The position numbers were made by a program, and so were the translations under genes. This document shows positions 6,042-49,970 of a stretch of DNA of 64,000 nucleotides, piece by piece (positions within the stretch are counted from its first letter, which is position 1; each line of letters opens with the position of its first letter). The notes under the pieces are model-generated. The model was given only the letters and a program-made list of their open reading frames with translations, did not search any database and was not told the DNA's origin. Source of the stretch: Streptomyces sp. Edi2 (GTDB lineage: Bacteria > Actinomycetota > Actinomycetes > Streptomycetales > Streptomycetaceae). The stretch spans positions 4,985,501 to 5,049,500 of the forward strand of contig NZ_JBEJGX010000003.1 in the NCBI RefSeq assembly GCF_040253635.1. The letters run 5' to 3'.

Positions 6042-6070
6042 ACCACGCCACCACCACAGGAGAACCCCGC

Positions 6071-31880: not shown

Positions 31881-32084
31881 ATGATGAAGGCCCGGATCGT
31901 GACCCGCTCGGTGCTCGGCCTGGCCGCCGGGGCGGTGGCGGTGCTGACGGCGGTCGTGCCGGCCGGGGCCGCCGTCTCAGCTCCCGGTGACACCCACGGG
32001 GACGTGGCCCTGACCGTCACGGGCACGGGCACGGGTGACATCCACGGGGGCACGACCGTCTCCTCGGACGACACCCACTGGTGA
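31881..32084 (+). CDS. Small secreted peptide with DTH/DIH motifs
   Basis: 67 aa from ATG 31881, with AAGGAG seven bases upstream. Residues 1-31 are a Sec-type signal peptide: basic MMKARIVTR, then hydrophobic LGLAAGAVAVLTAVV, then PAGAA-V as a likely cleavage site. The mature peptide of about 35 residues is Gly/Thr/Asp-rich and repeats a D-T/I-H element three times (GDTHGD, GDIHGG, DDTHW at the very end) with no cysteine. No known family is recognised. His/Asp spacing could bind metal. It sits between the two-component system and the biosynthetic cluster; it could be a signal, a substrate of the exporter, or unrelated. Confidence 0.7.
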   Translation: MMKARIVTRSVLGLAAGAVAVLTAVVPAGAAVSAPGDTHGDVALTVTGTGTGDIHGGTTVSSDDTHW

Positions 32085-32167
32085 GACAGGGAATCGGTGA
32101 GGGGCGGCAACGGGCCCTGTGGGGCCCGGCCTCGCCCTCCCACTGGGCCGTCGCAGGGCGGAGTCAG

Positions 32168-32209
32168 GCGTCACGCACGTTCACCGCCGAAGCGTCACGC
32201 ACGTTCACC
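32168..32209 (+). promoter_or_regulatory. Tandem 18-bp repeat ahead of the aminotransferase-like gene
   Basis: GCGTCACGCACGTTCACC occurs exactly at 32168-32185 and 32192-32209 (24-bp period, about two helical turns), ending 32 bp before the start codon at 32242. The spacing places both copies on one DNA face, as expected of an operator for a dimeric regulator such as the LuxR protein encoded downstream. The repeat is seen; binding is inferred. Confidence 0.55.
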
Positions 32210-32241
32210 CCGAAGGTTTCCTCCAGCAGGAGCACCCCGCC

Positions 32242-33417
32242 ATGCCGTCTCACGCCCGAGCTCTCGGTGAAGTTCCTGGCTCCTCCTCCCCTTTCGACCG
32301 TGTGGAAGAGCTGTTGCGCGGCTCCGGGCACGCGGCTCCGATCGGCTTGCACCGGGGCAGGACCGTCTTCGGGCCCTGCGCCCGGGCCCGCACCCGGGGC
32401 AGCGGGGAGTTCGGGTTCGCCGCCGACGCGCACGCTCCGCCCGGCGGCGTTCCTGCGCTGCGGGCGGCACTCGCCCAAGCTGCTACTGCCCGGCGGCAGA
32501 GTGCCGTACGCCCCGAACAGGTTCTGGTCACCAGGGGTGCCACGCACGCCCTCGCCGCCGCGCTGCACGCGATCCTGCGGGAGGGCGATGAGGTCCTGGT
32601 GCTCTCACCGCAGTGGCTGTTCGCCAACGGACTGATCCGGGCGGCCGGCGGAGTGCCCCGCGAGGTGCCGGTCTTCCTGGAGCTCGGCGCGGCCCGCGGA
32701 TTCGACTTCGCCGGGGTCGTCGAGAGGGCAGTGGCACCCGGGACCCGCGCGATCTACTTCAACAGCCCCAACAACCCGACCGGTTACCGGCTCGACGGCG
32801 GCCGGCTCGGTGCGCTCGCGGATCTGGCCGAGCGGCACGACCTGTGGCTGATCGCCGACAACACCTACGAGAGCTACGACTTCACCAGGGAGGGCTTCCT
32901 CGACATCGGGGCCGTCGGTGCGACGGCGGCGCGCGCCTTCTCCCTGCACAGCTTCAGCACGACGTATGCGATGCCGGGCGCCGGGGTGGGCTGCCTGATC
33001 TCCCCGCCGGGGCTGACGGAGCCGCCGGCCAAGTGGTCGCAGTGCGCGCTCCGTTCCGTCTCCACCCCGGCGCAGCTGGCCGTGTACGAGGCGCTGCGTA
33101 CGCCGCGCGAAGAGCTCGACCGGCGCCGGGACCACGCTGCCGCGGCCGGGTGGCTTGCCGATTCGACGCTGGAGGTACCGCACACGAAGCCGTCCGGCGG
33201 GCTGTACACCTTCCTCGATCTGAGCGCCTGGGGGGACGGCGAGCGGTTCGTTCACCGGTGCGCCGAGCTCGGTGTCGGCCTGGCCCCGGGCCGGGGCTTC
33301 GGGGCGCACTGCGGCAAGGGGGCCCGTCTCTGCTTCACCGCCGAGCCACCGCAGCGGGTGGCCGAGGCGATCGAACGCATCAACAAGATCTACGGGGAAG
33401 GCTTCGATGAGCACTGA
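32242..33417 (+). CDS. Aminotransferase class I/II-fold protein lacking the PLP lysine
   Basis: 391 aa from ATG 32242 (CAGGAG upstream); the same frame opens earlier at 32119 through the operator-like repeats and is not preferred. It has the fold-type I landmarks: VLVTRGATHALAAALHAILR, NSPNNPTGYRL with the conserved Asn, LIADNTYESYDF, and a C-terminal ARLCFTAEP resembling the substrate-carboxylate Arg region. At the normal SFSKTYAMPG site, however, the sequence is SFSTTYAMPG: Thr240 (codon ACG at 32959) replaces the Schiff-base lysine. It therefore cannot form the usual internal aldimine. It may use pre-formed PMP, act as a binding protein, or be a partner subunit. The downstream luxR gene overlaps its stop. 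Confidence 0.85.
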   Translation: MPSHARALGEVPGSSSPFDRVEELLRGSGHAAPIGLHRGRTVFGPCARARTRGSGEFGFAADAHAPPGGVPALRAALAQAATARRQSAVRPEQVLVTRGATHALAAALHAILREGDEVLVLSPQWLFANGLIRAAGGVPREVPVFLELGAARGFDFAGVVERAVAPGTRAIYFNSPNNPTGYRLDGGRLGALADLAERHDLWLIADNTYESYDFTREGFLDIGAVGATAARAFSLHSFSTTYAMPGAGVGCLISPPGLTEPPAKWSQCALRSVSTPAQLAVYEALRTPREELDRRRDHAAAAGWLADSTLEVPHTKPSGGLYTFLDLSAWGDGERFVHRCAELGVGLAPGRGFGAHCGKGARLCFTAEPPQRVAEAIERINKIYGEGFDEH

Positions 33418-33976
33418 GACGATCACCCTCGAACGCCCGGGAACCGGTGCGCCGGCCTTTCGCGCCGGCGTTCACGCGATGCGCACGGCGATCTGTGACG
33501 GCCGGCCACTCGTCTTGATGGGTCTGACGCACCTGCTGACCACCCAGTCCCCCTGCGAGGTCGTCTTCACCTCGGCCGATTCCTTTCCCGGCCCCGGGGC
33601 CGGGATCGACGTGCTGCTCGTGGAGGACACCTTGGCCCAGGCCGTGCCGGCGGGGCCGGCGTGGTGCGGGAGCGCGCCGGAAGTCGTCGTGGTGCGGGCC
33701 GAGGCGACCCCGGACCAGGTGCTGCGGCAGGTGTGCGAGGCCGTGGACCGCCGCACGCCGGTGCCCGGGGCCGGCCGTTCGGCGCCCGGGCTGTCGCCGC
33801 GCGAGCAGCAGGTGCTCCGGTTCATCGCCTCCGGGATGACCCACGGCCAGGTGGCCCGGCGGATAGGAATCAGCCCGCACACCGTCGACACGTACGTCAA
33901 GCGGGTGCGGTCCAAGTTCGGCATCGGCAACAAGGCGGAACTCACCCGCGTCGCGCTCGGCCTCCACCCCCTGTGA
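33407..33976 (+). CDS. LuxR-family transcriptional regulator without a clear receiver
   Basis: 189 aa from ATG 33407, overlapping the upstream stop by 11 bp. The C-terminal LuxR helix-turn-helix is well formed: LSPREQQVLRFIASGMTHG, then VARRIGISPHTVDTYVKRV and RSKFGIGNKAEL. The N-terminal part (CDGRPLVLMGLTHLLTTQSP ... VLLVEDTLAQAVPAGPAWCG) looks like a receiver domain that has lost its acidic pocket and phosphoacceptor Asp, so activity is probably controlled by a ligand or level rather than by phosphorylation. It is the likely pathway-specific regulator of the cluster and the candidate binder of the 24-bp-period repeats. Confidence 0.85.
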   Translation: MSTETITLERPGTGAPAFRAGVHAMRTAICDGRPLVLMGLTHLLTTQSPCEVVFTSADSFPGPGAGIDVLLVEDTLAQAVPAGPAWCGSAPEVVVVRAEATPDQVLRQVCEAVDRRTPVPGAGRSAPGLSPREQQVLRFIASGMTHGQVARRIGISPHTVDTYVKRVRSKFGIGNKAELTRVALGLHPL

Positions 33977-33992
33977 AGCCCCGTCCCGTACC

Positions 33993-34021
33993 CCGCCCCG
34001 GCACGACATCGTCCGGGGCGG
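33993..34021. terminator. Bidirectional terminator between convergent genes
   Basis: CCGCCCCGG and CCGGGGCGG form a 9-bp GC stem with an 11-nt loop between the ends of the luxR gene (33976) and the minus-strand operon (34056). Confidence 0.6.
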
Positions 34022-34055
34022 CCCACGGCTGCCCGCACAAGGGCCAAGGGGTCGG

Positions 34056-34538
34056 TCAGTGGTAGTGGCGCATGATGTCGGTGGCCCAGTCGGGCTGGGT
34101 GGTGGGGCCCTGGGGGCCGAACTCGGCCATGTAGGGCTTGATGTCGAGGACGGGGGTGCCGTCGACGGCGTCCAGGCCCTGGACGTGCAGGTCGAGGCCG
34201 TCGGCCTTGAGGAGGCGGCAGCGGGAGACGCCGATCCGGTTGGGGCGGTTCTTGCCGCGCTGGGCGAAGATGCCGACCAGGGGCCAGTCGGTGTTGCCGC
34301 GCGGGTGCCGGGCCCCGGTCTGGATCTTGTCGGTGGGGACGCGGTCGAAGTGGTAGACGACTTCCAGGTGGGAGAAGGTGTCCAGGCCCGCCACCGCCTC
34401 CGGGCCGTACTGGCCGGCGTCCAGGCGGATGATCGCCGTCTCCTTGCCCCAGTCGTCGTCGCGGACCTCCGTCCGGCCGCCGACCACCCGGCCCACCGGC
34501 ACCGAAACCACCGTGGCAGGAGTGCTGTTCTCGGGCAT
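34056..34538 (-). CDS. TrmO/TsaA-like S-adenosylmethionine-dependent protein (copy 1)
   Basis: 160 aa from ATG 34538. The family hallmarks are all present: FSHLEVVYHFDRV, HPRGN, PLVGIFAQRGKNRPN, IGVSRCRLL and the near-invariant GTPVLDIKPY. Classical TrmO methylates N6 of t6A37 in tRNA using SAM bound to a beta-barrel. A second copy, similar over much of its length, sits in the same operon at 40340-40834. Neither looks like a housekeeping tRNA enzyme by context, so they are more likely recruited SAM-dependent enzymes of the pathway. It is the last gene of the ten-gene minus-strand operon. Confidence 0.85.
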   Translation of the reverse strand: MPENSTPATVVSVPVGRVVGGRTEVRDDDWGKETAIIRLDAGQYGPEAVAGLDTFSHLEVVYHFDRVPTDKIQTGARHPRGNTDWPLVGIFAQRGKNRPNRIGVSRCRLLKADGLDLHVQGLDAVDGTPVLDIKPYMAEFGPQGPTTQPDWATDIMRHYH

Positions 34539-34584
34539 GTGCAGTGCCTTTCGTTCAAAGGGTCGGTCAGTCAGTCGAGTTGGC

Positions 34585-35925: not shown

Positions 35926-35936
35926 GGCAGCCTCCG

Positions 35937-36698
35937 TCAGGCCCGGCGGGCGGTGATGTTGAGCCGTACGTAGTCGACGACCGGCTCGGGGAGGCGGGCG
36001 GCGACCTCGCGGACGAAGTGATCGTGGTCGGACTCGGGGAGCTTGTCGAGGTGGGAGCCGAGGACCACGGTCGCCAGGTAGCTCCACAGCTGCTCGCCGG
36101 GCTCCAGCCGGGCCGGGTCGGGCAGCAGATTGACCTCGATGCCGGTGAACCCGGCGTCCTTCAGGCGCTCGGTGGTCTCCTCGACACCTGCGAAGTACCA
36201 GACCCGGTCCTGGTCATCGGTCTCGTCCGACTTCTTGCCCAGTACCTCATCCACGGCTGCGTTGATCCGCGCGACATTGCCCTGGCCGCCGCACTCGGCA
36301 ACGAACTGGCCGCCCGGTCGCAGGTGCCGGGCCAGGTTGGTGAAGAGCGCCGCGTGATCGGTGATCCAGTGGAAGGTGGCCACGCTGGTGATGGCGTCGA
36401 CCTGGCCGGATACCGGCAGGGGCTTGGTCAGGTCGGCCTGGACGACCTCGACCCGGTCGGACCGGTCGGCCAGCTTGGTGCGCAGCTGGTCGAGCATGCG
36501 ACGGGAGCCGTCGACGCCGATCACCCGGCCGTCCGGCACCAGGTCGAGCAACGCGGCCGTGTCGCGGCCCGTGCCGCAGCCGGCGTCCAGGACGGTTTCG
36601 CCACCCTTCAGACGCAGCCGGCCCAGGGTGCGCTTGCCCCACTGCTGGTGCGGCAGGGGAAGCGCGTCGTATGTCTTGGCGTCCCATTCACGAGGCAC
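35937..36698 (-). CDS. Class I SAM-dependent methyltransferase
   Basis: 253 aa from GTG 36698, overlapping the upstream stop by 11 bp. Motif I VLDAGCGTGRDT (about residue 38), post-I VIGVDGSRRML with Asp, motif II DAITSVATFHWI and LRPGGQFVAE place it in the UbiE/trans-aconitate-methyltransferase-like class I family. It would methylate a small molecule O, N or C. Pairing with a HemN-like radical SAM protein in one operon is notable, because such pairs build cyclopropanes in some known pathways. Substrate is not known. Confidence 0.9.
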   Translation of the reverse strand: MPREWDAKTYDALPLPHQQWGKRTLGRLRLKGGETVLDAGCGTGRDTAALLDLVPDGRVIGVDGSRRMLDQLRTKLADRSDRVEVVQADLTKPLPVSGQVDAITSVATFHWITDHAALFTNLARHLRPGGQFVAECGGQGNVARINAAVDEVLGKKSDETDDQDRVWYFAGVEETTERLKDAGFTGIEVNLLPDPARLEPGEQLWSYLATVVLGSHLDKLPESDHDHFVREVAARLPEPVVDYVRLNITARRA

Positions 36699-37743
36699 GG
36701 CACTGCTCCTTCGTATTGTTCATGCGGTCGTTCTCGGTGTGCGGTACGGGAACCGGGGTGCCGTCCAGGACCAGCCGGATCTCGATCGGGTGTGCGTCCC
36801 TGACCAGCCGCAGGGCATCCCCTTCGGCAAACCAGCGGCGTATGGTGCCGGCCGCCGCATCGCCCGCCTGTGCCGGGTCGGCGGGCAGCAACTGGACGAG
36901 GATGTTGCGCAACCCTGCGGGTACGTCAGGGGCGGCGGAGTACGGGCCGCGCAGGTCGATACGGCCGGAGGCGTGCACGGACGCCGACGCCTCACCGGCG
37001 GTGGCGGCCCGCGGGTCGGCGAAGCTCAGGGCCTCCGCCGCCAACGCGGCCAGGAAGTACTCCTGGGCACTCGGCGCGAGGTCGGCGCCGAACAGCTGCT
37101 TGGGCTGGTCGGACTCGGCGTGCACGCCGTCGGCCTCGGCGAGGACGTGGGTGCCGACCTCCCACCTCACATGGGCGGTACGCCGCCTGACGGCCGTGAA
37201 CCGCTCCGCGCCGGCCGGGGCGGGACGGCTGAGGAGGTGCACGTCCTGGGCGGTCTGCACGACGGCCTTGATGTCGCCCGGTTCTTCCAGGGTGTGATGC
37301 GCGCTGTCCCGTGCCCGGGCCGCCGCGACCGACCGCCGGGCCTGCCCGGTCAAGACACCACCGTCGAGACGTATCCCGTACGAGAGCCTGACGGAGCCGT
37401 CCGCTGCGAACTCGGCGCAGGGCAGCACCTCCAGGAGCTCCGGGCCGCACCCCTCACGGGACAGCTCGGTGACCACGCTGTCCGCCACGGAAGCCCCCAG
37501 GGCCACCAGCAGCGACCCGACCGGATCGAGGAAGTCGCCGGTGCCGGACCCGTACCGCTGGTCGATACCGAAGGCCCGGGCCACTCGGGTGGATCCGAGC
37601 CGCATCGGTTCGGTGCGCACCCGGCAGTGGCCGGCCGCCACGGTCCTGGCCGCCACGCCGACGCTCAGCTGTGCCTCCCAGGAGTCCTCCCCGATCTGCT
37701 CGGCCAGGGTCTGCCGGGCTCGTAGATCGACGCCGTTCAGCAT
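36688..37743 (-). CDS. Tandem OsmC-like domain protein lacking the peroxidatic cysteines
   Basis: 351 aa; ATG 37743 overlaps the upstream stop (TGATG) behind GGAGGTGA. Two OsmC/Ohr-like modules can be traced: residues about 1-165 with TGDFLDPVGSLLVALGASVA, and about 165-345 with FGADLAPSAQEYFLAALAAE. In OsmC proteins this helix carries the catalytic Cys (pattern LLAALASC); here the positions are Ser and Glu, so peroxidase activity is not expected. I infer a divergent binding or lyase function. The double-module layout is unusual. The assignment rests on the helix motif and general layout, so it is less certain than its neighbours. Confidence 0.6.
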   Translation of the reverse strand: MLNGVDLRARQTLAEQIGEDSWEAQLSVGVAARTVAAGHCRVRTEPMRLGSTRVARAFGIDQRYGSGTGDFLDPVGSLLVALGASVADSVVTELSREGCGPELLEVLPCAEFAADGSVRLSYGIRLDGGVLTGQARRSVAAARARDSAHHTLEEPGDIKAVVQTAQDVHLLSRPAPAGAERFTAVRRRTAHVRWEVGTHVLAEADGVHAESDQPKQLFGADLAPSAQEYFLAALAAEALSFADPRAATAGEASASVHASGRIDLRGPYSAAPDVPAGLRNILVQLLPADPAQAGDAAAGTIRRWFAEGDALRLVRDAHPIEIRLVLDGTPVPVPHTENDRMNNTKEQCRAS

Positions 37744-38792
37744 CACGTGTCACCTCCGTTGCTCTGCTCGAGGGCTGCGTCCAGGGCCCGCCTGAGCCGG
37801 CCGGCCAGGGCGTCACTGCCGGTGATGCCCACCGACAGGCGCACCAGTTGCCGGGTGATGCCCGCTTCCCGGCGGACCCGCTCGCTCAGGTGGGCGTGGC
37901 TGGTGTGGGCGGGCAGCCGGGCGGTGCCGGCGAGCGGTGTACCGTCGCCGTTGCAGGCGGCCAGGATGCCGGACAGGTCGCGGATCTCCGGTACGACCTC
38001 GAAGGACAGCAGTCCGCCGAAGCCCTGGTGGGTTTCCAGGGCCCACGGCGCCTCGTCGAATGACGGCCGGTGCACTGCCCGTACGGCAGGGTGCGCGCGC
38101 AGGGTCCCGGCTACTCGCTCGGCGCCTTCCCGCTGGGCGGACAGCCGCAGTTGCAGCGTGGCCAGGGAGCGTTCCAGCAGGTGGGCGGCCCAGTCGTGCA
38201 CCTCGCCGCCGAGCCGCGCGCACTGTTCGGCGATGCGTGGCAGATACCGGTCCAGGCCGGTGACCAGGGCGGCGCCGACGTCCCCCCAGCCGTCGAGACA
38301 GGGCGCCGTGTCCTCGATGACGATCACGGCGCCGGACTCCAGGGGCCGCAGTTCGGCGGGGGACAGCGCGGTGTTGTCCACGACCAGCAGCAGGTCGTTC
38401 ATCTGGGCGTGGGTGGCGATCTCGTTGAGCGGGGCGGGCCGCATCAGCGGGTCGCTCAGGGACGGTGTGTACACGACCTGGGTTTCGGGCCGTACGGAGG
38501 CGATGACGGCGTCCGGGTCGGTGCAGTCGACGAAGGTCACCGTGCGTCCCAGGCCGGTGAGTTCCCGGGTCAGGACGCCGCGCAGCGGGTCGCAGACCTG
38601 GTCGGAGGCGATGAGGTGACCGCCCGGGTTGGTCAGGGCGAGCAGCGTGCCCGTGGTGGCGGCCACGGCTCCGGGCACGAGCAGCGCGGAGTCGGCGCCG
38701 TGCAGGGCGGCGAAGGCGTCCTCGACCCGGCGGACCGGACCGTGGGCCGGGGACGCGGGGGCGGTCGCGGGTGCGGTCTGCAGCACGGTCAC
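37743..38792 (-). CDS. Cystathionine gamma-synthase-fold protein lacking the PLP lysine
   Basis: 349 aa from GTG 38792, overlapping the radical SAM stop (GTGA). The fold is the Cys/Met-metabolism PLP family: FAALHGADSALLVPGAVAAT corresponds to the early LEGA..AL.F.SG region, and VDNTALSPAELRPLESGA aligns without gaps to the VDNTFATP..QRPLELGA motif. Continuing that alignment, the invariant SATKYLGGHSD reads DTAPCLDGWGD, so Pro164 (codon CCC, 38301-38303 on the plus strand) replaces the PLP lysine. The N-terminus also lacks about 50 residues that normally include the YSR phosphate-binding motif. It is either a pseudoenzyme or has a new chemistry. It is the second lysine-less PLP fold in this cluster. 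Confidence 0.85.
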   Translation of the reverse strand: MTVLQTAPATAPASPAHGPVRRVEDAFAALHGADSALLVPGAVAATTGTLLALTNPGGHLIASDQVCDPLRGVLTRELTGLGRTVTFVDCTDPDAVIASVRPETQVVYTPSLSDPLMRPAPLNEIATHAQMNDLLLVVDNTALSPAELRPLESGAVIVIEDTAPCLDGWGDVGAALVTGLDRYLPRIAEQCARLGGEVHDWAAHLLERSLATLQLRLSAQREGAERVAGTLRAHPAVRAVHRPSFDEAPWALETHQGFGGLLSFEVVPEIRDLSGILAACNGDGTPLAGTARLPAHTSHAHLSERVRREAGITRQLVRLSVGITGSDALAGRLRRALDAALEQSNGGDT

Positions 38793-40258
38793 CGCCGGCA
38801 CACGGGCGCGTCGGACAGGCCGATGCGCTGGTGGAAGTAGTGGAAGATGATCTCCTCGTGCAGGGCCTCGCCGTCCAGGGTCGGACTGAGGGCGGTGCCG
38901 TCGTGGACCTTCTCGACCAGTCCGCGCTCCAGCAGCTCGGCGAACGCGGAGGCGAAGGGCTCCGTCTCCAGCAGGTCGGCGCCGAAGCGCTCCTGGTAGC
39001 GGGCCAGGACGATCGGCTGGTTGGCCTTGAAGTTGAAGCCGAGGGCGGTGCCGATGGCCTTGTGGCCACTGAGCCGGCGGCCGAAGTTGAGCGGCAGGCC
39101 CTCGTTGTTCTGCATGAACGACACGTACTTGCTGATGTCGGTGATGTTGTGCGTCTGAAGGAACTCCTCCTGGTCCCCGGTGAGCCAGCCGTAGGCCCCG
39201 GGGCCGTAGGCGATCATGGTGTTGTAGTGCTCCCACTTGTTCTTCGAGGTCTGCGGGATGTTGCCGCCCTCGTAGGTGTCCGGGCGGCTCCACCAGCCGC
39301 AGGGGCTGGGGTAGTAGCCCTGTTCCAGCAGGACCTCGACGGCCTCCTGGCGCATCGCGTACGTGGAGTCCAGGCCCGGGAAGCGGCCCTCGTTGATGAG
39401 CCGTTCGCGCACCGCGGGGTTGTTCCAGACCGCGCGGTTGCCGATGCCCATCTCCTCCCGGTCGGCGTTGCGCAGCCGGTAGATGGTGATGGTGGGAACG
39501 CCGAGGCCGGTGAGGATTTCCATGTCGCGGCGTACCGACTCCGGGGTCTGGTACGGCAGGCCGAACATCATGTCGACGTTGAAGGGGCAGCCGGTGGCGA
39601 GCAGGTTCTCGACGGCCTCGATCGACTGGGCCGCGGAGTGACGGCGCTTGGTGAAGTCGTTCACCTCGTCCTGCAGTGACTGCACACCGAGGCTGAACCG
39701 GTTGAAGCCCAGCTCACGTGCGGTCTCCAGGTGGTGGCGCTGGAAGTTCTCCGGGTTGCCCTCGATGTTGAACTCGATGCCGTCGGCCAGTTCGTAGTTC
39801 TCCCTGACGTGCTCGACCAGCGGCTTGATGAAGTCGGGGCTGTTGAGCAGCAGGGCCGCGGTGCCGCCGCCGATGTAGAAGGACTCGATGCGGGCCCGGG
39901 GTATCCAGTCGTAGCGGTCCAGGTAGCGGCGGGACTCCTCGATCAGCAGGTCGGACCACAGGCGCAGAGCGCCGTCCTCCTTGCCGCGGGGCACGAGCCG
40001 TTTGACGTAGTTGCAGAAATGACAGATGTAGTTGCAGAGCGGCAGGTGAAAGTACAGGTGCGCCGGGTGGCCCGCGCCCGGGAACGCGCCGTACTCTGCG
40101 GCGAGTTCGTCACTGCCGAGCCGGTCACCCTCGTTCGAGGTGACGTTGATGTTGTACTCGTCGCGGGGGATCTGAAGCTGCGGGTTGCGGTCGAGAAGGC
40201 GGCCGAGGTTGAGTTCGAGATCGGCCGTGGTGCCGCCGGTGCTGGTGGGGAGGGACAT
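38789..40258 (-). CDS. HemN-like radical SAM enzyme
   Basis: 489 aa from ATG 40258, with AAGGAG at the right distance. The iron-sulfur motif CNYICHFC (CxxxCxxC, about residues 76-83) is followed by SFYIGGGTAALL, the SAM-binding GGGT of coproporphyrinogen-oxidase-like enzymes, then FNIEGNPENF and FSLGVQSLQ, and a C-terminal HemN-type wing region. The family includes oxygen-independent CPO and many pathway enzymes: class C methylases, cyclopropanases and C-C-forming enzymes. Here it sits in a biosynthetic operon beside a class I methyltransferase, so a tailoring role is likely. True HemN would be expected among haem genes. Confidence 0.9.
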   Translation of the reverse strand: MSLPTSTGGTTADLELNLGRLLDRNPQLQIPRDEYNINVTSNEGDRLGSDELAAEYGAFPGAGHPAHLYFHLPLCNYICHFCNYVKRLVPRGKEDGALRLWSDLLIEESRRYLDRYDWIPRARIESFYIGGGTAALLLNSPDFIKPLVEHVRENYELADGIEFNIEGNPENFQRHHLETARELGFNRFSLGVQSLQDEVNDFTKRRHSAAQSIEAVENLLATGCPFNVDMMFGLPYQTPESVRRDMEILTGLGVPTITIYRLRNADREEMGIGNRAVWNNPAVRERLINEGRFPGLDSTYAMRQEAVEVLLEQGYYPSPCGWWSRPDTYEGGNIPQTSKNKWEHYNTMIAYGPGAYGWLTGDQEEFLQTHNITDISKYVSFMQNNEGLPLNFGRRLSGHKAIGTALGFNFKANQPIVLARYQERFGADLLETEPFASAFAELLERGLVEKVHDGTALSPTLDGEALHEEIIFHYFHQRIGLSDAPVCRR

Positions 40259-40339
40259 GTGACTCCTTGATGGTGGAGGGCCCGGGGTGGCTTGTGGCCG
40301 GACCGGGTGTGAGGAGTGGCACGAGGACTGTGTGCGTCG

Positions 40340-40834
40340 TCAGAGGCTGTAGTAGCGGGACATCGCCGCGTGCAGCCAGGCCGGCTCGCGGACCGTTTCC
40401 GCCTCCGGGCGGAAGAGCCGCTGGTACGGCTTGATGTCGAGGACCGGCGTGCCGTCCAGCGCGTCAAGTGCCCGTACGTGCAGGGTCATGCCGTCGACGC
40501 GGACCAGTTCGCAGCGCGAGACGCCGAGCCGGTTGGGGCGTTCCTTGAGCCGTTGGGCGAGGATGCCGAGCCGGGGCAGGTCGGTGCGGCCCCGGGGGTG
40601 GCAGTCGCCGGTGACGGCCGCGGTCTCGGGGACCAGATGGAAGTGAAAGACGATTTCGAGGTGTGAGAACTGCTCCAGGCCGGTCACGGCCTCGGGCCGC
40701 AGCCGCTCGGGGTCCAGCTCGATGACCGAGCTGACACCGCCCCAGCGGTCGTGTTCGGGCACGCTGCGGGGCGAGCGGACGACGCCGATGGGGTGGACGA
40801 CGTACGAGGGTGAGGTCCCGCGGGTCTCCTGCAT
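40340..40834 (-). CDS. TrmO/TsaA-like S-adenosylmethionine-dependent protein (copy 2)
   Basis: 164 aa from ATG 40834, chosen because CGGAG lies upstream; ATG 40867 is an alternative. It shares FSHLEIVFHFHLV, HPRGRTDLPRLGILAQR, ERPNRLGVSRCEL and GTPVLDIKPY with the copy at 34056-34538; about half the residues in the central block are the same by eye. Two paralogues in one operon suggest two successive SAM-dependent steps, or a heteromer, in the pathway. It lies between the PCP-thioesterase and radical SAM genes. Confidence 0.85.
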   Translation of the reverse strand: MQETRGTSPSYVVHPIGVVRSPRSVPEHDRWGGVSSVIELDPERLRPEAVTGLEQFSHLEIVFHFHLVPETAAVTGDCHPRGRTDLPRLGILAQRLKERPNRLGVSRCELVRVDGMTLHVRALDALDGTPVLDIKPYQRLFRPEAETVREPAWLHAAMSRYYSL

Positions 40835-40877
40835 GGGTACTCCGTTCCGGTGGCGGCGGTCATCCATGGGGCGGCCG

Positions 40878-41954
40878 TCAGGGGGTCAGGGCGGCCGCAG
40901 ACCTCGCGTCGAGCTGTTCGCGCAGCCGGCGGCCCAGGACCTCGACCTGGCCGGGCTCGACCATCGTGAAGTGGTCGCCCGGGACGTCGACGACGGCGGC
41001 TTGCTCCGCCACCTCGCTCCAGCCCAGGTCGTCGGGGAGCGTGCCGCCGTCCAGGGAGCGGTCGGTGACACGGAAGACGGTGACGGGGCCGTCGTAGGGC
41101 TTGATCTCGTAGGCCGCCAGGGCGTCCAGGTTGTACTGATACATGTCGATCATGCGGAGCAGCCGGTCGGCGTCGAAGTCGGCGGGCATGGTGCCGGCCT
41201 TGACGGCCCGTTCCACCAGGACCTGCGCCCGGGTGCCGGGGTCCAGCCCGCGCAGCCAGTCGACGTCCAGCTCCAGTTTGAGCCCGCGCCACAGCAGGGC
41301 GCGCAGCGCGAAGTCCGGATCCCCGCTGGGCTCGACCGTGATGCGGGTGTCCAGCAGGCCGACGAGTCCGACACGCTCACCGCGCTCTTCGAGACGGCGG
41401 GCGATCTCGTAGGCAAGCAGCCCGCCCATCGAGTAGCCGATCAGGTTCCATGCGGCACCCTCGGGGTGGACGGTCCGCAGCTGCTCGATGAAGTGCTCGG
41501 AGATCTCCTCGAGCGAGGAGAGAGGTTCCTCCCCGGGCAGCAGACCGAGCGACTGTACGGCCCAGAAGGGCTGGTCGAGGCCCATGGCACGGGCGATGGG
41601 CGGGTAGAGCAGCACGGTTCCTGACACCGGCGGCAGGGCGTACACCGGGCTGCCGCCCGCGCCCTGCTGGACGCGGACCAACTGGCCCTGCCGGTCGGCC
41701 ACGCCACCGCGGATGATCTCGGCGAGTTCGGCGACCGTGGCCGCGGAGAGCAGGTCCGCGGCGGTCAGGTCGACCTGGAAGAGCCTGCGCACCTCCACCG
41801 TCAGTTTGATGGCGAGCAGCGAGTGGCCGCCGAGCGAAAAGAAGTCGTCGTGGATGCCGACGTCGTCACGGCCCAGCAACCGGCGCCACAGGTCCGCCAG
41901 TTGGAGTTCCACGCCGTCGCGGCCGAGGACGCTGGTGTTTTCGGGGTGGGTCAT
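40878..41954 (-). CDS. Peptidyl carrier protein-thioesterase didomain
   Basis: 358 aa from ATG 41954 (GAGGGAG upstream). Residues 1-85 form a carrier protein with DDFFSLGGHSLLAIKL; Ser45 of GGHS takes phosphopantetheine. Residues about 105-350 form an NRPS-type thioesterase with the nucleophile in GYSMGGLLAYEI and a catalytic His in PGDHFTMVEPG. This is the C-terminal end of an NRPS module, detached from its adenylation partner (44196-45686), with no condensation domain anywhere in the cluster. It would hold the activated amino acid for tailoring and release it by hydrolysis, cyclisation or transfer. Confidence 0.92.
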   Translation of the reverse strand: MTHPENTSVLGRDGVELQLADLWRRLLGRDDVGIHDDFFSLGGHSLLAIKLTVEVRRLFQVDLTAADLLSAATVAELAEIIRGGVADRQGQLVRVQQGAGGSPVYALPPVSGTVLLYPPIARAMGLDQPFWAVQSLGLLPGEEPLSSLEEISEHFIEQLRTVHPEGAAWNLIGYSMGGLLAYEIARRLEERGERVGLVGLLDTRITVEPSGDPDFALRALLWRGLKLELDVDWLRGLDPGTRAQVLVERAVKAGTMPADFDADRLLRMIDMYQYNLDALAAYEIKPYDGPVTVFRVTDRSLDGGTLPDDLGWSEVAEQAAVVDVPGDHFTMVEPGQVEVLGRRLREQLDARSAAALTP

Positions 41955-42000
41955 CGTCTCCCTCGTCTGACATGTCGTAGGGGATGTGCGCACGGACCGT

Positions 42001-43230
42001 TCAGGTGGCGGTCGCGGCGGCTGCCCGGGCCCCGGCCATGCGGCCCTCGGCCCAGCGCACCGCCGGTGCCATCGCCAGCCCTCCGGCCAGGAACACCGCG
42101 CCCAGGACCAGCCAGCCGGACGTGCCCCAGTCGATGAGGAGCAGGGTCAGCGAGACCGGGCCGAACATCTGGACAGCCGCGATCCCGGTGTTGAACAGGC
42201 CCTGGTACTGGCCCTGTTTGTCCGCCGGGGCAAGCTCGTAGCCGATCACCCAGGAACCGGCGGACTGGATCATCTCGCCGTACACATGGAGTGCCGCGGC
42301 CACCGCCAGCGCAGCCGTCGCCGCCACCGGGCCACGCCCGGCCGACAGGGCGAAGGCCGCGCAGCACCCGAGCAGCGCCAGTCCGGCGATGCGGAAGGCG
42401 CGGACGGCGGAGCGCAGTCCGTCGATCTTCTTGGTGAGGGGGACCTGCAGGCCGACGACGGCGAGGGTGTTGAGGAGCAGCAGGACAGCGGTGAGCGCGG
42501 GCGGCGCTCCGGTGTGGAGCGCGATCCACAGCGGGAGGATCACTTCCAGGATCGGGATGTGCAACAGCATCACCATGTTCAGCGCGGCGAGCAGCGCGTA
42601 CGGGGTGTCGCGCAGCACCGCGAGCCGCGGTTCGCCCGGCGTGCGACGGGACGCGGGCGGTGCGGCCGGCAGCCGCAGGAACAGCAGACCGCAGCCCACG
42701 AAGCTCAACGCGTTGAGAAGAAAGGTGAGCCGGTAGGCCGTTCCGGTGTCCCATAGCAGGGCCAGACCGCCGAGCCCGGCGCCGGCCGAGACGCCCACAT
42801 TGGTGACGACGCGGATCTTGGCACGTACGCGGACGAGATTGTCGGCGTTCAGCACGGCCGGGATCAGCGCCTGCCGGGCCGCGTGGGCGCCGCGTTCGAA
42901 CAGGGCGTACAGGAAGGCGATCACGACGAACCCGGGGAAGGAGCCGGTCGTCAGGTACGCGCTGGTGGCGAGACCCGCGAGGGCGAGGAGCGCCGCCGCG
43001 GTGCCGCGCGGGCCCCTGCGGTCGGCGAGGTGGCCGAAGGGGACGCCCGCGAACAGGCCCGCGATGCCGGCGATGGTCAGGCCGAGGCCGAGCTGGGACG
43101 GGCTGAAGCCCACGATCCGGGTGAAGTAGAGGGCGGAACAGGTCAGGAAGGCGCCATTTCCCAGGGAATTGACGAGTGTGCCGAGAATGAGGGTGCGGCC
43201 GGGGCCGTCTTCGATGAGGCGGGACGTCAT
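42001..43230 (-). CDS. MFS transporter
   Basis: 409 aa from ATG 43230. About twelve hydrophobic segments, with the MFS loop motif GHLADRRGPRG between helices 2 and 3 (about residues 70-80) and further short Arg-rich cytoplasmic loops. Major facilitator proteins of this size in biosynthetic clusters normally export the product by proton antiport and give self-resistance. It overlaps the stop of the hydrolase gene by ATGA and is followed, 46 bp on, by the PCP-thioesterase. Confidence 0.9.
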   Translation of the reverse strand: MTSRLIEDGPGRTLILGTLVNSLGNGAFLTCSALYFTRIVGFSPSQLGLGLTIAGIAGLFAGVPFGHLADRRGPRGTAAALLALAGLATSAYLTTGSFPGFVVIAFLYALFERGAHAARQALIPAVLNADNLVRVRAKIRVVTNVGVSAGAGLGGLALLWDTGTAYRLTFLLNALSFVGCGLLFLRLPAAPPASRRTPGEPRLAVLRDTPYALLAALNMVMLLHIPILEVILPLWIALHTGAPPALTAVLLLLNTLAVVGLQVPLTKKIDGLRSAVRAFRIAGLALLGCCAAFALSAGRGPVAATAALAVAAALHVYGEMIQSAGSWVIGYELAPADKQGQYQGLFNTGIAAVQMFGPVSLTLLLIDWGTSGWLVLGAVFLAGGLAMAPAVRWAEGRMAGARAAAATAT

Positions 43231-43997
43231 GCGGATTTTTCCTTCGCACCGTTTCCGTTTCCGGAAAGCCCGGCGAACTGGTCCCGATAGAATTCGCGCA
43301 TCACGGACGCGATCTCCTCCGTATTGCGGTAGCAGTCGGCATGCGATCCCCGGACGGTTTCCAGCCGGAGCATTCCGCCGCTCCGGCCGGAGAGGCGTTC
43401 GCGTTCACCGGCCAGGATGTTGCCGCTGTCGGCGCCGGCCAGCACCAGCACCGGGATGCCGAGCCGTTCCAGCAGGTCCGGCAGGTGCCCGAAGTCGTAG
43501 GTCCAGCGCAGCAGACTGCCCTCGGCCCACTCGTCGGCCACGTGCAGCGCGGGGTGCGCGTCGAAGGACTGGTCGATCACCACCAGGCTCCGTACCCGGG
43601 ACGCGCCCCAGGTGACCGCGGAGACCGCCACCACCAGCCCGCCGTACGAGTACCCGACGAGGTGCAGCTCGTCCGGGAGGATGTCGGCGATGCGATGGAC
43701 GTCGGCGGAGAAGTCGAGTACCGAGTAGCCCCAGTCCGGCCGGTGGCTGTCGCCGTGGGCACGCAGCGAGGGGTGGACGGCGACGGAACCGGCCGGGCAC
43801 AGGGCGTCGCCGACGGGCCGCAGCTGGCTTTTGTCGCCGCCGAACCCGTGGAGCAGGAGCATGCTGCCCGGAGCGCCGCCGGCCCGGGGGAGCCCGGGAA
43901 CGGCGTCGTAGTCAAGCAGTTCGACGCCGCTGCCGTGTCCCGCCAGGGCCGGTGCGGGCAGAACGCGGTCTTCCGGTCCGGCAAAGCTCATTGACAT
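43227..43997 (-). CDS. Alpha/beta hydrolase, possibly a type II thioesterase or proofreading hydrolase
   Basis: 256 aa from ATG 43997 (AAGGGGG upstream; ATG 43991 is six bases on). LLLHGFGGDKSQ gives the oxyanion-hole region, GYSYGGLVVAVSA the nucleophile Ser, and SHADCYRN the catalytic His. It is the first gene of the minus-strand operon and is divergent from the adenylation gene, 198 bp apart. A stand-alone hydrolase next to a split NRPS suggests an editing thioesterase, ester cleavage or lactone opening; the sequence does not choose among these. Confidence 0.85.
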   Translation of the reverse strand: MSMSFAGPEDRVLPAPALAGHGSGVELLDYDAVPGLPRAGGAPGSMLLLHGFGGDKSQLRPVGDALCPAGSVAVHPSLRAHGDSHRPDWGYSVLDFSADVHRIADILPDELHLVGYSYGGLVVAVSAVTWGASRVRSLVVIDQSFDAHPALHVADEWAEGSLLRWTYDFGHLPDLLERLGIPVLVLAGADSGNILAGERERLSGRSGGMLRLETVRGSHADCYRNTEEIASVMREFYRDQFAGLSGNGNGAKEKSA

Positions 43998-44195
43998 CAA
44001 CCCCCTTGAGGAAAGCCGAGGTCGCTGCCCGGCCACACCAGATTCCAATTCGGTCGTGGGAAAGGTCAATGCCGGTCACTGTCCCCGGATTCTGGTACGT
44101 GACATCAGGAGTGAAGGGGAGTGAATATCTGTGGTGGGTGCCGGAATTCCGGTCGGCCCGGTCTTCGGTCCGCCGGCAGAACTGGAGGGATTTCC
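43998..44195. promoter_or_regulatory. Divergent promoter region of the biosynthetic cluster
   Basis: This 198-bp gap must drive both the leftward ten-gene operon and the rightward adenylation gene. GTACGTGAC near 44096 loosely resembles part of the repeat at 32168-32209 (reverse complement GTGCGTGAC), but the match is too short to be sure. No clear -10/-35 was seen. Confidence 0.35.
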
Positions 44196-45686
44196 ATGGG
44201 AGTCGGACTCATCCACCAGGCCGTCGCGCACCGGGCCCGGACGGCGCCGGAAGCTCCGGCGGTGGTGGACGGCACCGTACGGCTCGACTACGCCACCCTC
44301 GACGCGGCGGCGGACGCCTGGGCGGCCCGGCTGGCAGCGGCCGGGGCAGCGCCGGGCACACTGGTCCCCGTCCTGCTCCCGCGCTCGGCCCGCTTGTACG
44401 TCGCGCTGCTCGCGGTCCTCAAGTGCGGTGCCGGGTATGCCGCCCTGGACCCCAGGTGGCCGCAGGAGCGGATCGACTCCGTGCTCCGGCAGCTGGGCGG
44501 CCCCGTGCTGGTGACCGACCTCGACAGCCTGCCCGGGTGGCCCGTGTGGCAGCCCCCGGGCGACTTCGCCGCCCCGGGCGGCCCGGGTGCGTTCCACGCG
44601 TACGACGGGCCGTCCGACGCTCCGGCCACGGTCTTCTTCACGTCCGGCACCAGCGGCACACCCAAAGGCGTGGTGTCCCCGCACGCGGCCACCACACGGC
44701 TGTTCACCGCGGACGGGCCCCTCGCCTTCGGCCCCGGCACCGTCATGATGCAGGCGGCCCCGTCGGCCTGGGATGCCTTCTCCCTGGAGCTGTGGGGGAT
44801 GCTCACCACCGGCGGTACCTGTGTCACCGCCTCGGAGGACTACCTCCTCCCGGACACCCTGCGGGAACTGATCGACACCTGTGCGGTCGACAGTGCCTGG
44901 CTCACCGCCTCCCTGTTCAATCTGTTCACCGAGATCGACCTGGACTGCTTCCGGGGCCTGCACAGCCTCTACATCGGCGGGGAGCGGCTGTCGACCGCGC
45001 ATGTGGACCGGTTCCTCGCCGCCCACCCCGACGTCCGGCTGGTCAACGGCTACGGCCCGGTGGAGAGCTGCGTGTTCGCCACCGTGCACCCCGTCACCGC
45101 GCAGGACTGCCGGGCGGAGCTCGGCGTCCCCATCGGCCGTCCGGTACCCGGCACCGGAGTGCACATCCTGGACGAGGACGGGCGGGAGTGCCCGCCCGGA
45201 GGCGTGGGCGAGCTGTGCGTCAGCGGCGCCGGCCTGGCACACGGCTACCTCGGCGATCCGGCCCTGACAGCCGCTCGCTTCCACGAGAGCCGGCCGGGCG
45301 GCACCCGCCTCTACCGGACCGGCGACCAGGGCCTGAGGGACACCGACGGCGTCTTCCACTTCACCGGGCGAACCGACCGCCAGGTCAAGATCCGCGGCTA
45401 TCGCATCGAGCCGGAGGAGATCGAGGCCCACGCGGCCCGGCTCCCCGGGATCACGCACTGTGTGGCCGTCCCCGTGCCCGGCCAGCTGGGCAACTACGAC
45501 CGCCTCGCGCTGTTCTACACCTCCTCCGACGAGGCCCCCGAGGACCCCGCGCTGCTGCGCCGTTCCCTGGGCCAACAGCTGCCCGCGCACGCGGTGCCGG
45601 ACGTCGTACGGCGCGTGCACCGGCTGCCGGTGACGGCCAACGGAAAGGTCGACCGATCCGAGCTGCTGGCCACGCTCACCGGCTGA
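44196..45686 (+). CDS. Stand-alone NRPS adenylation domain
   Basis: 496 aa from ATG 44196 (TGGAGGGA upstream). All core motifs are present: A3 FFTSGTSGTPKGV, A5 VNGYGPVES, A7 YRTGDQG, A8 GRTDRQVKIRGYRIE and A10 NGKVDR with its catalytic Lys. No carrier or condensation domain follows, so it must load the separate PCP of 40878-41954. Reading the pocket by eye from WDAFSLELW, SAWLTASLF, LYIGGE and NGYGPVESCVF gives D-A-L-W-Y-G-G-V, closest to codes for valine or similar small branched amino acids; this is tentative. It converts an amino acid to its AMP ester at the expense of ATP. Confidence 0.93.
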   Translation: MGVGLIHQAVAHRARTAPEAPAVVDGTVRLDYATLDAAADAWAARLAAAGAAPGTLVPVLLPRSARLYVALLAVLKCGAGYAALDPRWPQERIDSVLRQLGGPVLVTDLDSLPGWPVWQPPGDFAAPGGPGAFHAYDGPSDAPATVFFTSGTSGTPKGVVSPHAATTRLFTADGPLAFGPGTVMMQAAPSAWDAFSLELWGMLTTGGTCVTASEDYLLPDTLRELIDTCAVDSAWLTASLFNLFTEIDLDCFRGLHSLYIGGERLSTAHVDRFLAAHPDVRLVNGYGPVESCVFATVHPVTAQDCRAELGVPIGRPVPGTGVHILDEDGRECPPGGVGELCVSGAGLAHGYLGDPALTAARFHESRPGGTRLYRTGDQGLRDTDGVFHFTGRTDRQVKIRGYRIEPEEIEAHAARLPGITHCVAVPVPGQLGNYDRLALFYTSSDEAPEDPALLRRSLGQQLPAHAVPDVVRRVHRLPVTANGKVDRSELLATLTG

Positions 45687-45737
45687 CCGCCGCGCCGGTC
45701 CCCCGTATCCAAGCCGAGCCGAGAAAGGCACCCTTCC

Positions 45738-46169
45738 ATGCCCGTCATCACCCTGCTGTCCCCCGACCCGAGCCCCGGCAGCCCCGTCCTGGCACAGATC
45801 GCCGGGGCAGTCACCGGGCTGCTGGGCATTCCCCCGCAGCACTGCTGGCTGACCTGGCAGCAGCTCGACGCCGATGCGGCGCACCGCCCCGAATGGGAGC
45901 GCGCCACCCTCCCGACCACGCCAGGGCGGCACGACACCGCCGCCCGCCCGTGTGCCCCGATCGGCTTCGTCACCTGCAAGGAAACCTACTCACGGGAGAC
46001 GGTGGGCCGGCTTCTGCGGCTGCTGCGCGACGAGCTGGCAACCGTGCTGGGAGTGCCGGGGGACGAGGTCTATCTCGCGGTGCGTCGGGCTGTGCCGGGT
46101 GAACTGCTGGTCAGGGGGGAGGTGTGGGCCGGGGACGAGCCGGCCTCCGTCCTGCGCCACCACCCCTGA
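45738..46169 (+). CDS. Small protein with Pro after Met, tautomerase-superfamily-like
   Basis: 143 aa from ATG 45738, 51 bp after the adenylation gene. The protein begins MPVITLLSPDPSPGSP, so removal of Met would leave an N-terminal Pro, the catalytic base of tautomerase-superfamily enzymes. The length fits two fused beta-alpha-beta units (LAQIAGAVTGLLGIPPQHCW and LLRLLRDELATVLGVPGDEV each look like the helix-strand of such a unit), as in cis-CaaD-like members. No other family is recognised. A role in keto-enol or dehydrohalogenation-like chemistry of the pathway is inference. It is convergent with the AfsR-like regulator. Confidence 0.65.
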   Translation: MPVITLLSPDPSPGSPVLAQIAGAVTGLLGIPPQHCWLTWQQLDADAAHRPEWERATLPTTPGRHDTAARPCAPIGFVTCKETYSRETVGRLLRLLRDELATVLGVPGDEVYLAVRRAVPGELLVRGEVWAGDEPASVLRHHP

Positions 46170-49243: not shown

Positions 49244-49970
49244 TTTTCCCCATCCCCGTACATGCATCGCGATCAAGGATCGGCACCGTAGCCCTCGGCC
49301 GGAGCTGGCCTCCGGATGATTGCCAGGAGTTTCCCGGTAAATGGCACACGGGTGGCCCGGTACCCGTATTTTCCCCGGCCGGGCGGTACAAGCTGCGTCG
49401 CGACAGGATCGACTCAGCGCATCAGGTTCTCAGGGCGGTGATCAGAACCCATGAGGGGTCGCCCGCCCGGCCCTTCAGGCCGGCTTCGGACAAGCCCCGT
49501 CGAAGCGCCGTCGGGCGGCAGGACGAACAGGTACCTCCGCAAGTGGGGGCATCGTCATGCCGGGCGGCGCCGGGCGACACCGCCCGGGGAGGCCGACGGA
49601 TCCGGGTGCGAGGTGGCCGGATATGGGGCTCGATTGTGCCCCGAACTGCAACTTCCCATGTCTGCCCCCGTTCCAGCGCGGGCGATGCCGCGCAGATACG
49701 CACACTCAAGCGCACGCCGGCCGGCGCGTGTGGTCAGGAAATGCCAGCCGGACCGAACGCGCGTCCATAATTGCACAGACGCGCAACGGGTGTGCATGGC
49801 GCAAAAACTCCCCCGACGCCCCCCACGCACGCACATGAACCGCGACCGCACGACGGAAGCACGCCGTCCGGCAGGCAAGCGCCGCGGGCCCGCACGGCCC
49901 GGCCCTGCCGACGGGCGCCCGCTGTATGCGGGAGGGGTACTTGACGAAAAGCAGACGGCATCGTGGGAGC
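49244..49970. other. Non-coding gap of about 730 bp, no gene recognised
   Basis: Several open frames run through, but none has a ribosome site or family resemblance and they overlap each other on both strands. The right part, near 49770-49810, is locally AT-richer. It should contain the promoters of the AfsR-like gene and of the gene at 49974. Confidence 0.5.

What the first reader, a model, noticed from the sequence alone, without database searches (positions are those of the whole stretch)
31881..46169. Candidate undescribed natural-product pathway built around inactive-looking PLP folds
A ten-gene minus-strand operon plus four flanking genes combine a split NRPS (adenylation domain, PCP-thioesterase, no condensation domain), an ATP-grasp ligase, a HemN-like radical SAM enzyme, a class I methyltransferase, two TrmO-like proteins, an OsmC-like tandem protein and two PLP-fold proteins lacking the catalytic lysine. 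Overlaps tie most of them together (GTGA, TGATG, ATGA). I know no characterised pathway with this set. It may modify a carrier-bound amino acid and join it to a second unit through the ATP-grasp enzyme.
Basis: partly seen in the sequence, partly recalled or inferred. Interest (0 to 1): 0.85.

Follow-up and report, generated by a model that had tools for sequence, protein, structure and literature searches.

The report
Split-NRPS cluster with radical SAM cassette
This stretch of an actinobacterial genome is a real, conserved small-molecule gene cluster whose core combines a radical enzyme, two tRNA-methylase-like proteins and a tautomerase, a set also found in clusters that appear to make modified peptides; its product is unknown.

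Summary
Ten minus-strand and four flanking genes lie where described, with the stated overlaps. A seven-gene block is kept in order in 14 distinct genomes (Streptomyces, Streptacidiphilus, Actinoplanes). A reciprocal search of 392 Streptomyces genomes with the OsmC-like protein returned the same eight genomes plus two informative outliers. Both PLP folds lack the catalytic lysine (14 of 14 and 5 of 5 orthologs) yet are under purifying selection. The interpretation needs correcting: the PLP folds are not the centre. The unassigned end gene (45738-46169) is a Pro1 tautomerase. With TrmO2 at the other end it is one ancestral gene split in two: they are fused in Streptacidiphilus, one Actinoplanes and five of six sister clusters. 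In those sister clusters no NRPS gene was found; they have a SPASM radical SAM gene and a conserved 46-53 aa peptide. So HemN-like + TrmO/tautomerase + methyltransferase + exporter looks like a portable cassette, serving a carrier-bound amino acid here and probably a ribosomal peptide there. The HemN-like protein keeps dual-SAM residues; six of eleven clusters have a SAM synthetase gene alongside. In one genome a PCP-condensation/A pair stands in for the ATP-grasp ligase, supporting amide formation. Chemistry and product remain inferred.

The parts
32242..33417 (+). Aminotransferase-fold protein, catalytic Lys replaced by Thr; found only in closest relatives
   Evidence: PF00155 E 3e-30; T in 5 of 5 orthologs; NCBIfam neighbours include GntC, VioD and a MocR-like regulator, all far below cut-off
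33407..33976 (+). LuxR-type regulator, overlaps the AT-like gene
   Evidence: PF00196 E 1.5e-15
34056..34538 (-). TrmO2, TrmO-like SAM-binding protein; C-terminal half of an ancestral tautomerase::TrmO protein
   Evidence: PF01980 91.8 bits; fused in L009, L020, L021, L036, L037, L038, L049
34585..35925 (-). ATP-grasp ligase, L-amino-acid ligase type
   Evidence: PF13535; best solved relative BacD E 1.4e-19
35937..36698 (-). Class I SAM methyltransferase
   Evidence: PF13649 E 5.6e-23; DAGxGTG motif in 12 of 12 window-type rows
36688..37743 (-). Tandem OsmC-fold protein without the OsmC cysteines (first column mostly Ser, second always Glu)
37743..38792 (-). Cys/Met-metabolism PLP-fold protein without catalytic Lys, phosphate Ser/Thr and N-terminal arm
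   Evidence: PF01053 E 1.6e-49 from profile position 56; alignments; start
38789..40258 (-). HemN-like radical SAM protein with dual-SAM residues
   Evidence: PF04055 E 1e-21; NocN residue mapping
40340..40867 (-). TrmO1, second TrmO-like protein
   Evidence: PF01980 92.4 bits; present in all 14 window-type clusters
40878..41993 (-). PCP-thioesterase
   Evidence: PF00550 and PF00975; GGHSLL Ser and GYSMGG Ser kept in 12 of 12 rows aligned
42001..43230 (-). MFS exporter
   Evidence: PF07690 E 1.4e-28
43227..43997 (-). alpha/beta hydrolase with nucleophile motif
   Evidence: PF00561; YSYG in 12 of 12 rows aligned
44196..45686 (+). Stand-alone adenylation domain, ten-residue code DALLYGGVFK
   Evidence: PF00501 E 2.5e-63; code read off
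45738..46169 (+). Tautomerase-superfamily protein (Pro1, invariant Cys80); N-terminal half of the tautomerase::TrmO protein
   Evidence: AF2 pLDDT 90; Foldseek top Cg10062/cis-CaaD E 5e-9; columns
46214..49276 (-). BTAD/NB-ARC/TPR (SARP-type) regulator, probable cluster regulator in closest relatives
   Evidence: PF03704 E 2e-41; 84-93% identical and adjacent in L003, L005, L024

Best explanation
A specialised-metabolite cluster that makes a small modified amino acid or dipeptide. Inferred order: (1) the stand-alone A domain activates an aliphatic (Val-like) amino acid and loads it on the PCP of PCP-TE; (2) the HemN-like enzyme, using two SAM, makes a SAM-derived methylene radical and transfers one carbon, as a SAM adduct, to the carrier-bound substrate; (3) the TrmO-like protein(s) hold the SAM end of that adduct while the tautomerase Pro1 does acid/base chemistry on the substrate end, so that S-adenosylhomocysteine leaves with methylation or ring closure (as C10Q does for C10P); the class I methyltransferase adds or resolves a further one-carbon step; (4) the CGS-like and OsmC-like proteins, without catalytic residues, act as scaffold or binding proteins; (5) TE releases the product, the ATP-grasp ligase joins it to a second amino acid, and MFS exports it. 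Shown: gene content, conservation, residue losses, fusion history, shared cassette. Inferred: every chemical step and the product.
For: Seven-gene block in the same order in 14 distinct genomes. Reciprocal test: the OsmC-like query hits 10 of 392 Streptomyces genomes, 8 being exactly those with window-type HemN. HemN-like keeps the three Cys and NocN Tyr34, Tyr96, Arg153, Asp196 and Arg230, with Ser225 as Thr, in 18 of 18 locus rows (residues named in PMC12871812 passages). SAM-adduct precedent: C10P/C10Q (PMC6050322 abstract and passages). Tautomerase and TrmO fused in L009, L049 and 5 of 6 sister clusters. HemN (119 rows) and TrmO-fusion (53 rows) homologs share 11 contig lengths against a shifted control of mean 0.12, max 2. 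A SAM synthetase gene lies beside the tautomerase gene in 6 of 11 distinct clusters with that flank read; the three of these genomes checked have one or two further copies. ATP-grasp replaced by PCP-C + A in L009. dN/dS 0.28-0.43 for the two pseudoenzymes.
Against: Characterised class C enzymes attack sp2 carbons (PMC12871812), and nothing in the window obviously makes one on a Val-like substrate. The adduct-resolving role of TrmO/tautomerase rests on fusion, co-occurrence and analogy only. A. flavus shows no tautomerase-half match genome-wide at E 1e-10 and no TrmO2 in its cluster, so that step is dispensable or different there. Position 128 is Phe in 14 of 118 more distant HemN rows. The window's own cluster has no extra metK. 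The A-domain call is a reading of ten residues with no reference table in a call. Whether the peptide in the sister clusters is modified at all is untested.
Confidence: 0.45

Rival explanations
1. The TrmO-like proteins are self-protection: the product hits translation and TrmO1/TrmO2 modify tRNA (as housekeeping TrmO does at A37) to protect the producer; HemN and the methyltransferase do the biosynthesis.
For: Both exceed the PF01980 cut-off; the genome has three further TrmO-like genes, one beside a gene that looks by eye like argininosuccinate synthase.
Against: TrmO2 was ancestrally fused to a tautomerase, and both TrmO proteins fall below the TIGR00104 equivalog cut-off, TrmO1 only just: 92.4 and 86.1 against 93.25. 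The same fusion serves sister clusters of different gene content.
Confidence: 0.13
2. The HemN-like enzyme works like HemN itself: the SAM-derived radical takes a hydrogen from the substrate for decarboxylation or desaturation, and the methylations are separate steps by TrmO/MT.
For: HemN (1olt) is the best solved relative by sequence. The revised HemN mechanism also uses a SAM-II methylene radical (PMC12871812 passage).
Against: Position 128 is Tyr as in NocN where the HemN alignment shows His, and 263 is Arg as in NocN. The best NCBIfam model is the ChuW/HutW methyltransferase, 135.7 bits against 94 for HemN, though far below its cut-off of 400.
Confidence: 0.22
3. CGS-like and OsmC-like still do sulfur chemistry, so the product contains sulfur delivered by them.
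For: The related pair in L041 and L042 keeps the lysine and, in part, the OsmC cysteines; 6 of 28 close OsmC-like rows keep the first Cys.
Against: Lys, the phosphate-binding Ser/Thr, the cofactor-stacking Tyr and the N-terminal arm are gone in the window type (roles of these residues recalled); the second OsmC Cys is Glu in 28 of 28.
Confidence: 0.1
4. A decaying or inactive cluster.
For: Several catalytic residues lost; a few orthologs show a stop codon inside the tblastn match (ATP-grasp of L022 and L008/L025, OsmC of L040, hydrolase of L049), not examined further.
Against: dN/dS 0.14-0.58 in 42 of 43 gene pairs, one pair 0.90 (taut vs L024); open frames in the window; block order conserved in 14 genomes.
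Confidence: 0.03

Closest known systems
C10P/C10Q two-component cyclopropanase of CC-1065 (PMC6050322, abstract and passages seen)
   Same: HemN-like radical SAM enzyme with a SAM-binding partner that resolves a SAM-substrate adduct
   Different: Partner there is a methyltransferase; here, by proposal, a TrmO-fold/tautomerase pair plus a class I methyltransferase; substrate carrier-bound or perhaps peptide-bound
NosN/NocN class C radical SAM methylases (PMC12871812, abstract and passages seen)
   Same: Dual-SAM residues conserved
   Different: Distant in sequence (E 5e-15); other substrate; no TrmO or tautomerase partner mentioned in the passages seen
Bacilysin-type L-amino-acid ligases (BacD, 3wnz)
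   Same: ATP-grasp ligase; residues 80-314 align
   Different: Rest of pathway unrelated; far below the BacD equivalog cut-off (60.5 of 850 bits)
SPASM radical SAM RiPP systems such as mycofactocin/PQQ maturases
   Same: The sister clusters pair a SPASM gene with a short conserved peptide
   Different: No relative of that peptide and no SPASM gene found in the window cluster; the NRPS genes take their place
CGS + tandem OsmC + A + PCP-TE clusters (L041, L042), for which I know no product
   Same: Adjacent CGS-OsmC pair with A and PCP-TE
   Different: Those keep the PLP lysine and OsmC cysteine(s); no HemN-like or TrmO hit within the 20 kb read

Membership tests
HemN-like dual-SAM / class C radical SAM methylases | CxxxCxxC cluster motif | tested here: met
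   C75, C79, C82; 18 of 18 loci rows and 118 of 118 protein rows
HemN-like dual-SAM / class C radical SAM methylases | Residues binding the second SAM (NocN Tyr34, Tyr96, Arg153, Asp196, Ser225) | tested here: met
   Y69, Y128, R187, D229 identical, T258 conservative, in 18 of 18 loci rows; Y128 is Phe in 14 of 118 protein rows
HemN-like dual-SAM / class C radical SAM methylases | Transfers a SAM-derived carbon to an sp2 carbon | not testable with these tools
   Needs purified enzyme and substrate
HemN-like dual-SAM / class C radical SAM methylases | Curated equivalog score (ChuW/HutW TIGR04107, cut-off 400) | tested here: not met
   135.7 bits: related to, not a member of, that equivalog
TrmO tRNA methyltransferase | TrmO_N domain over Pfam cut-off | tested here: met
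   91.8 and 92.4 against 26.8 bits
TrmO tRNA methyltransferase | TIGR00104 equivalog cut-off (93.25) | tested here: not met
   TrmO1 92.4 (just below), TrmO2 86.1
TrmO tRNA methyltransferase | Methylates t6A37 of tRNA | not testable with these tools
   -
Tautomerase superfamily | Fold and N-terminal Pro after Met | tested here: met
   Foldseek E 5e-9, prob 1.00; Pro at 2 in 42 of 44 rows; no Pfam hit for the window protein, one relative touches PF01361 weakly, E 0.037
Cystathionine gamma-synthase/lyase PLP family | Schiff-base lysine | tested here: not met
   P or L in 14 of 14; K in L041, L042
Cystathionine gamma-synthase/lyase PLP family | N-terminal arm and phosphate-binding Ser/Thr | tested here: not met
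   Profile match begins at position 56 of 381; SATK-type motif replaced
OsmC/Ohr peroxidases | Fold | tested here: met
   Foldseek prob 0.99 but E 7e-3; PF02566 on L009 ortholog E 3e-9
OsmC/Ohr peroxidases | Catalytic cysteines (here one column per repeat) | tested here: not met
   First-repeat column S 21, C 6, G 1 of 28; second-repeat column E 28 of 28
L-amino-acid ligases (BacD-like ATP-grasp) | ATP-grasp domain with ligase-type match | tested here: met
   activity not testable
Nonribosomal peptide synthetase | A domain, PCP with Ser, TE with Ser and His | tested here: met
Nonribosomal peptide synthetase | Condensation domain | tested here: not met
   None in 19 window proteins scanned; one in the L009 cluster; other clusters not scanned for it
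RiPP | Precursor peptide gene | tested here: not met
   Sister peptides find nothing in the window at E 0.05; an unrelated short peptide cannot be excluded

The most novel reading that the evidence does not exclude
HemN-like enzyme + tautomerase::TrmO is a new modular SAM-adduct system: a TrmO-fold protein has been turned from a tRNA methylase into the partner that holds and discharges a SAM-substrate adduct made by a dual-SAM radical enzyme, with a Pro1 tautomerase as its acid/base half. The same module is plugged into both ribosomal-peptide and split-NRPS pathways, the latter with two conserved pseudoenzymes (PLP-fold and OsmC-fold) as structural parts.
Probability: 0.33. Interest if true: 0.88.

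Novelty: new variant of a known kind. Interest (0 to 1): 0.7.

Why it matters
If right, it gives a testable function to TrmO-like and tautomerase genes that annotation calls tRNA methylase or hypothetical, may tie a family of HemN-like enzymes with relatives named from Bacillus, Burkholderia and Photorhabdus to secondary metabolism, and offers a clear case of a catalytic enzyme pair (CGS + OsmC) kept after losing its catalytic residues. The cluster is also a direct genome-mining target: heterologous expression should show a new C1-modified amino acid or dipeptide.

Tried and rejected
4'-thiothymidine cluster of Photorhabdus (PMC12691670, abstract and passages seen): its radical SAM gene thmA sits with a kinase and a triphosphatase gene, and HemN, TrmO and tautomerase do not occur in the text; dropped. 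Poly-cyclopropylglycine enzyme TvgB (PMC9062424, abstract and passages seen): a different kind of peptide-modifying radical SAM enzyme; dropped. Plasmid collection with HemN: no match at E 1e-40. Phylum-wide sample: 1 of 396, the window's own genome. Comparison with MIBiG was not possible. Contexts of the Bacillus, Burkholderia, Photorhabdus and Mesorhizobium HemN relatives could not be read (protein only), so whether they are RiPP- or NRPS-like is unknown. A claim that all 14 clusters have the tautomerase had to be dropped: A. flavus lacks it and the L004 contig ends before it. A first count of 6 of 10 for the SAM synthetase was mended to 6 of 11 (L049 has none). The loss of the first OsmC cysteine is not universal (6 of 28 keep Cys). 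Paper searches; in the rows listed I saw no cluster with TrmO/TsaA and radical SAM, nor CGS with OsmC, and (TsaA, radical SAM, gene cluster, methyltransferase together) found no paper; several listings were capped (20 of 261 and 20 of 7,246) and the library holds only open-licence PMC papers. In one search TrmO rows too short for both domains (67 of 120 listed) and one HemN row without a contig length were left out; the protein lists were capped at 120 of 177 and 120 of 2030.
Full report
Observation. Gene calling and Pfam give ten minus-strand genes from 43997 down to 34056 (alpha/beta hydrolase, MFS, PCP-TE, TrmO1, HemN-like radical SAM, CGS-like, OsmC-like, methyltransferase, ATP-grasp, TrmO2) and four plus-strand neighbours (aminotransferase-like, LuxR, A domain, tautomerase-like). 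The stated overlaps are in the sequence. The window lies in a 9.8 Mb genome.

Conservation. HemN-like loci were found in eight named genome records: six Streptomyces, Streptacidiphilus jiangxiensis and Actinoplanes flavus. Adding G-handle genomes and removing duplicates (G366 = L003, G343 = L008 = L025, G222 = L007, G854 = L009, judged by identical coordinates or contig lengths), I read 14 distinct clusters of the window type: window, L003-L010, L022, L023, L024, L040, L049. L049 is Actinoplanes ianthinogenes by its contig length. All 14 have A domain, hydrolase, MFS, PCP-TE, TrmO1, HemN-like, CGS-like, OsmC-like (fragmentary in L010) and MT. ATP-grasp is in 13 of 14 (not found in the 18 kb of L009). 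Tautomerase is in 12 of 14: L004 is truncated and A. flavus lacks it. The AT-like gene was seen only in the window, L003, L004, L005 and L024 (the L007 contig ends before its place). Frequency, own genome counted: 2 of 100 relatives, 10 of 392 Streptomyces (8 window-type, 2 sister-type), 9 of 394 in the family, 1 of 396 in the phylum, the own genome only; and 2 of 200 in the family of A. flavus, itself included. Samples overlap. Reciprocal test: the OsmC-like query hits 10 of 392, namely the eight window-type genomes plus two others, G166 and G295.

The two others. L041 and L042 have CGS, tandem OsmC, A domain and PCP-TE but no HemN-like or TrmO hit in the 20 kb read. Their CGS has a full N-terminal arm, the SATK lysine and the VYGG tyrosine; OsmC keeps the first Cys in both and the second in L041. 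So the window pair is a degenerate form of a pair that is intact elsewhere. It is nevertheless maintained: dN/dS against four orthologs is 0.28-0.37 for CGS-like and 0.31-0.43 for OsmC-like, against 0.14-0.15 for HemN-like (simple Nei-Gojobori, codon bias ignored). The lysine position is P or L in 14 of 14 CGS-like orthologs.

The cassette. Six sister clusters with HemN-like 55-61% identical to the window's (L020, L021, L036-L039) read: SPASM radical SAM, short peptide, HemN-like, hydrolase, MT, tautomerase::TrmO, MFS. None shows a hit to the window's A domain, PCP-TE, CGS-like, OsmC-like or ATP-grasp at E 1e-5 within about 20 kb. The SPASM match is open in five of six; in L020 it contains one stop, near its C-terminal end. 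Three of the six SPASM proteins were scanned: nearest to mycofactocin, PqqE, StsB and WgkB-type maturases, all far below their cut-offs. The peptide is 52-53 aa; the copies of L021, L036, L037 and L038 are 96-100% identical to that of L020, and L039 has a 46-aa relative, 51% identical over 33 residues. Tautomerase and TrmO are one protein in five of these six and in L009 and L049, and lie in separate frames in L039 and in the window type of Streptomyces; L040 keeps one TrmO2 next to the tautomerase and another at the far end. Contig lengths of HemN (119) and TrmO-fusion (53) homologs coincide 11 times, against mean 0.12 and max 2 in shifted controls; the matching HemN rows lie in several parts of the HemN tree (SH-aLRT support only, quick mode, midpoint root).

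Folds. The 143-aa end gene has no Pfam hit, but its AF2 model (pLDDT 90, 44 sequences) matches Cg10062, cis-CaaD, MIF and fused 4-OT structures; Pro2 is kept in 42 of 44 and Cys80 in 44 of 44. The OsmC-like model (pLDDT 83) matches OsmC/Ohr with prob 0.99 but E only 7e-3.

HemN-like. From the HMMER alignment to NocN and the residue list in PMC12871812 (passages), second-SAM ligands are kept. Tyr128 matches NocN, where the HemN alignment shows His; 14 of 118 more distant HemN-like rows have Phe there. In the C10P/C10Q precedent a HemN-like enzyme makes a SAM-substrate adduct and a SAM-binding partner expels SAH (PMC6050322). By analogy I propose TrmO/tautomerase as such a partner. In support, 6 of 11 distinct clusters whose flank beyond the tautomerase gene was read carry a SAM synthetase gene there (L003, L005, L008, L009 partial at the contig end, L022, L023; not window, L006, L024, L040, L049), and the three of these genomes that were checked have one or two further copies; the window's genome has one in all.

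Substrates. The A-domain signature read by motif alignment is DALLYGGVFK (position 5 varies: Y, V, L, H, F) in 12 orthologs, L004 lacking the last residue. I recall GGTFK-type endings as valine-like; no call tested this. ATP-grasp aligns to BacD. In L009 it was not found, and a PCP-condensation protein plus a second A domain stand after MT, so amide bond formation is the likely shared function.

Limits. No product, no MIBiG search, no enzymology; an sp2 acceptor carbon is not accounted for; the sister peptides are only presumed precursors.

Noticed in passing
L020:8486-8641, L021:8737-8892, L036:11131-11289, L037:10471-10626, L038:10403-10558, L039:8615-8752: Conserved 46-53 aa peptide with shared GAASA segment between a SPASM radical SAM gene and the HemN-like gene; looks like a RiPP class I could not name.
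   Followed up: partly
L041:5072-11832 and L042:7814-15550: CGS gene with intact lysine next to a tandem OsmC gene, A domain and PCP-TE; a B12-type radical SAM gene lies nearby in L041.
   Followed up: partly
window 32242-33976: Lysine-less aminotransferase fold overlapping a LuxR regulator gene; might be a ligand-sensing partner, like a split MocR regulator (speculation).
   Followed up: no
L022:1904-3112, L023:17673-18890, also L003, L005, L008, L009: SAM synthetase gene beside the tautomerase gene; a further copy elsewhere in the three genomes checked.
   Followed up: yes
L009:11172-14644: PCP-condensation protein and second A domain (code DFWQIGMVHK, recalled as Thr-like) where other clusters have the ATP-grasp ligase.
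   Followed up: partly
L028, L029, L030: Three further TrmO-like genes in the same genome, one beside an argininosuccinate-synthase-like gene, two beside proteins that look like regulators (neighbours named by eye).
   Followed up: no
window 1253-9542: tRNA-Thr followed by an integrase-like ORF and a relaxase-like ORF; may be an integrative element (judged by eye, untested).
   Followed up: no
window 53533-56931: 1132-aa protein with beta-helix repeats and two AAA domains.
   Followed up: no
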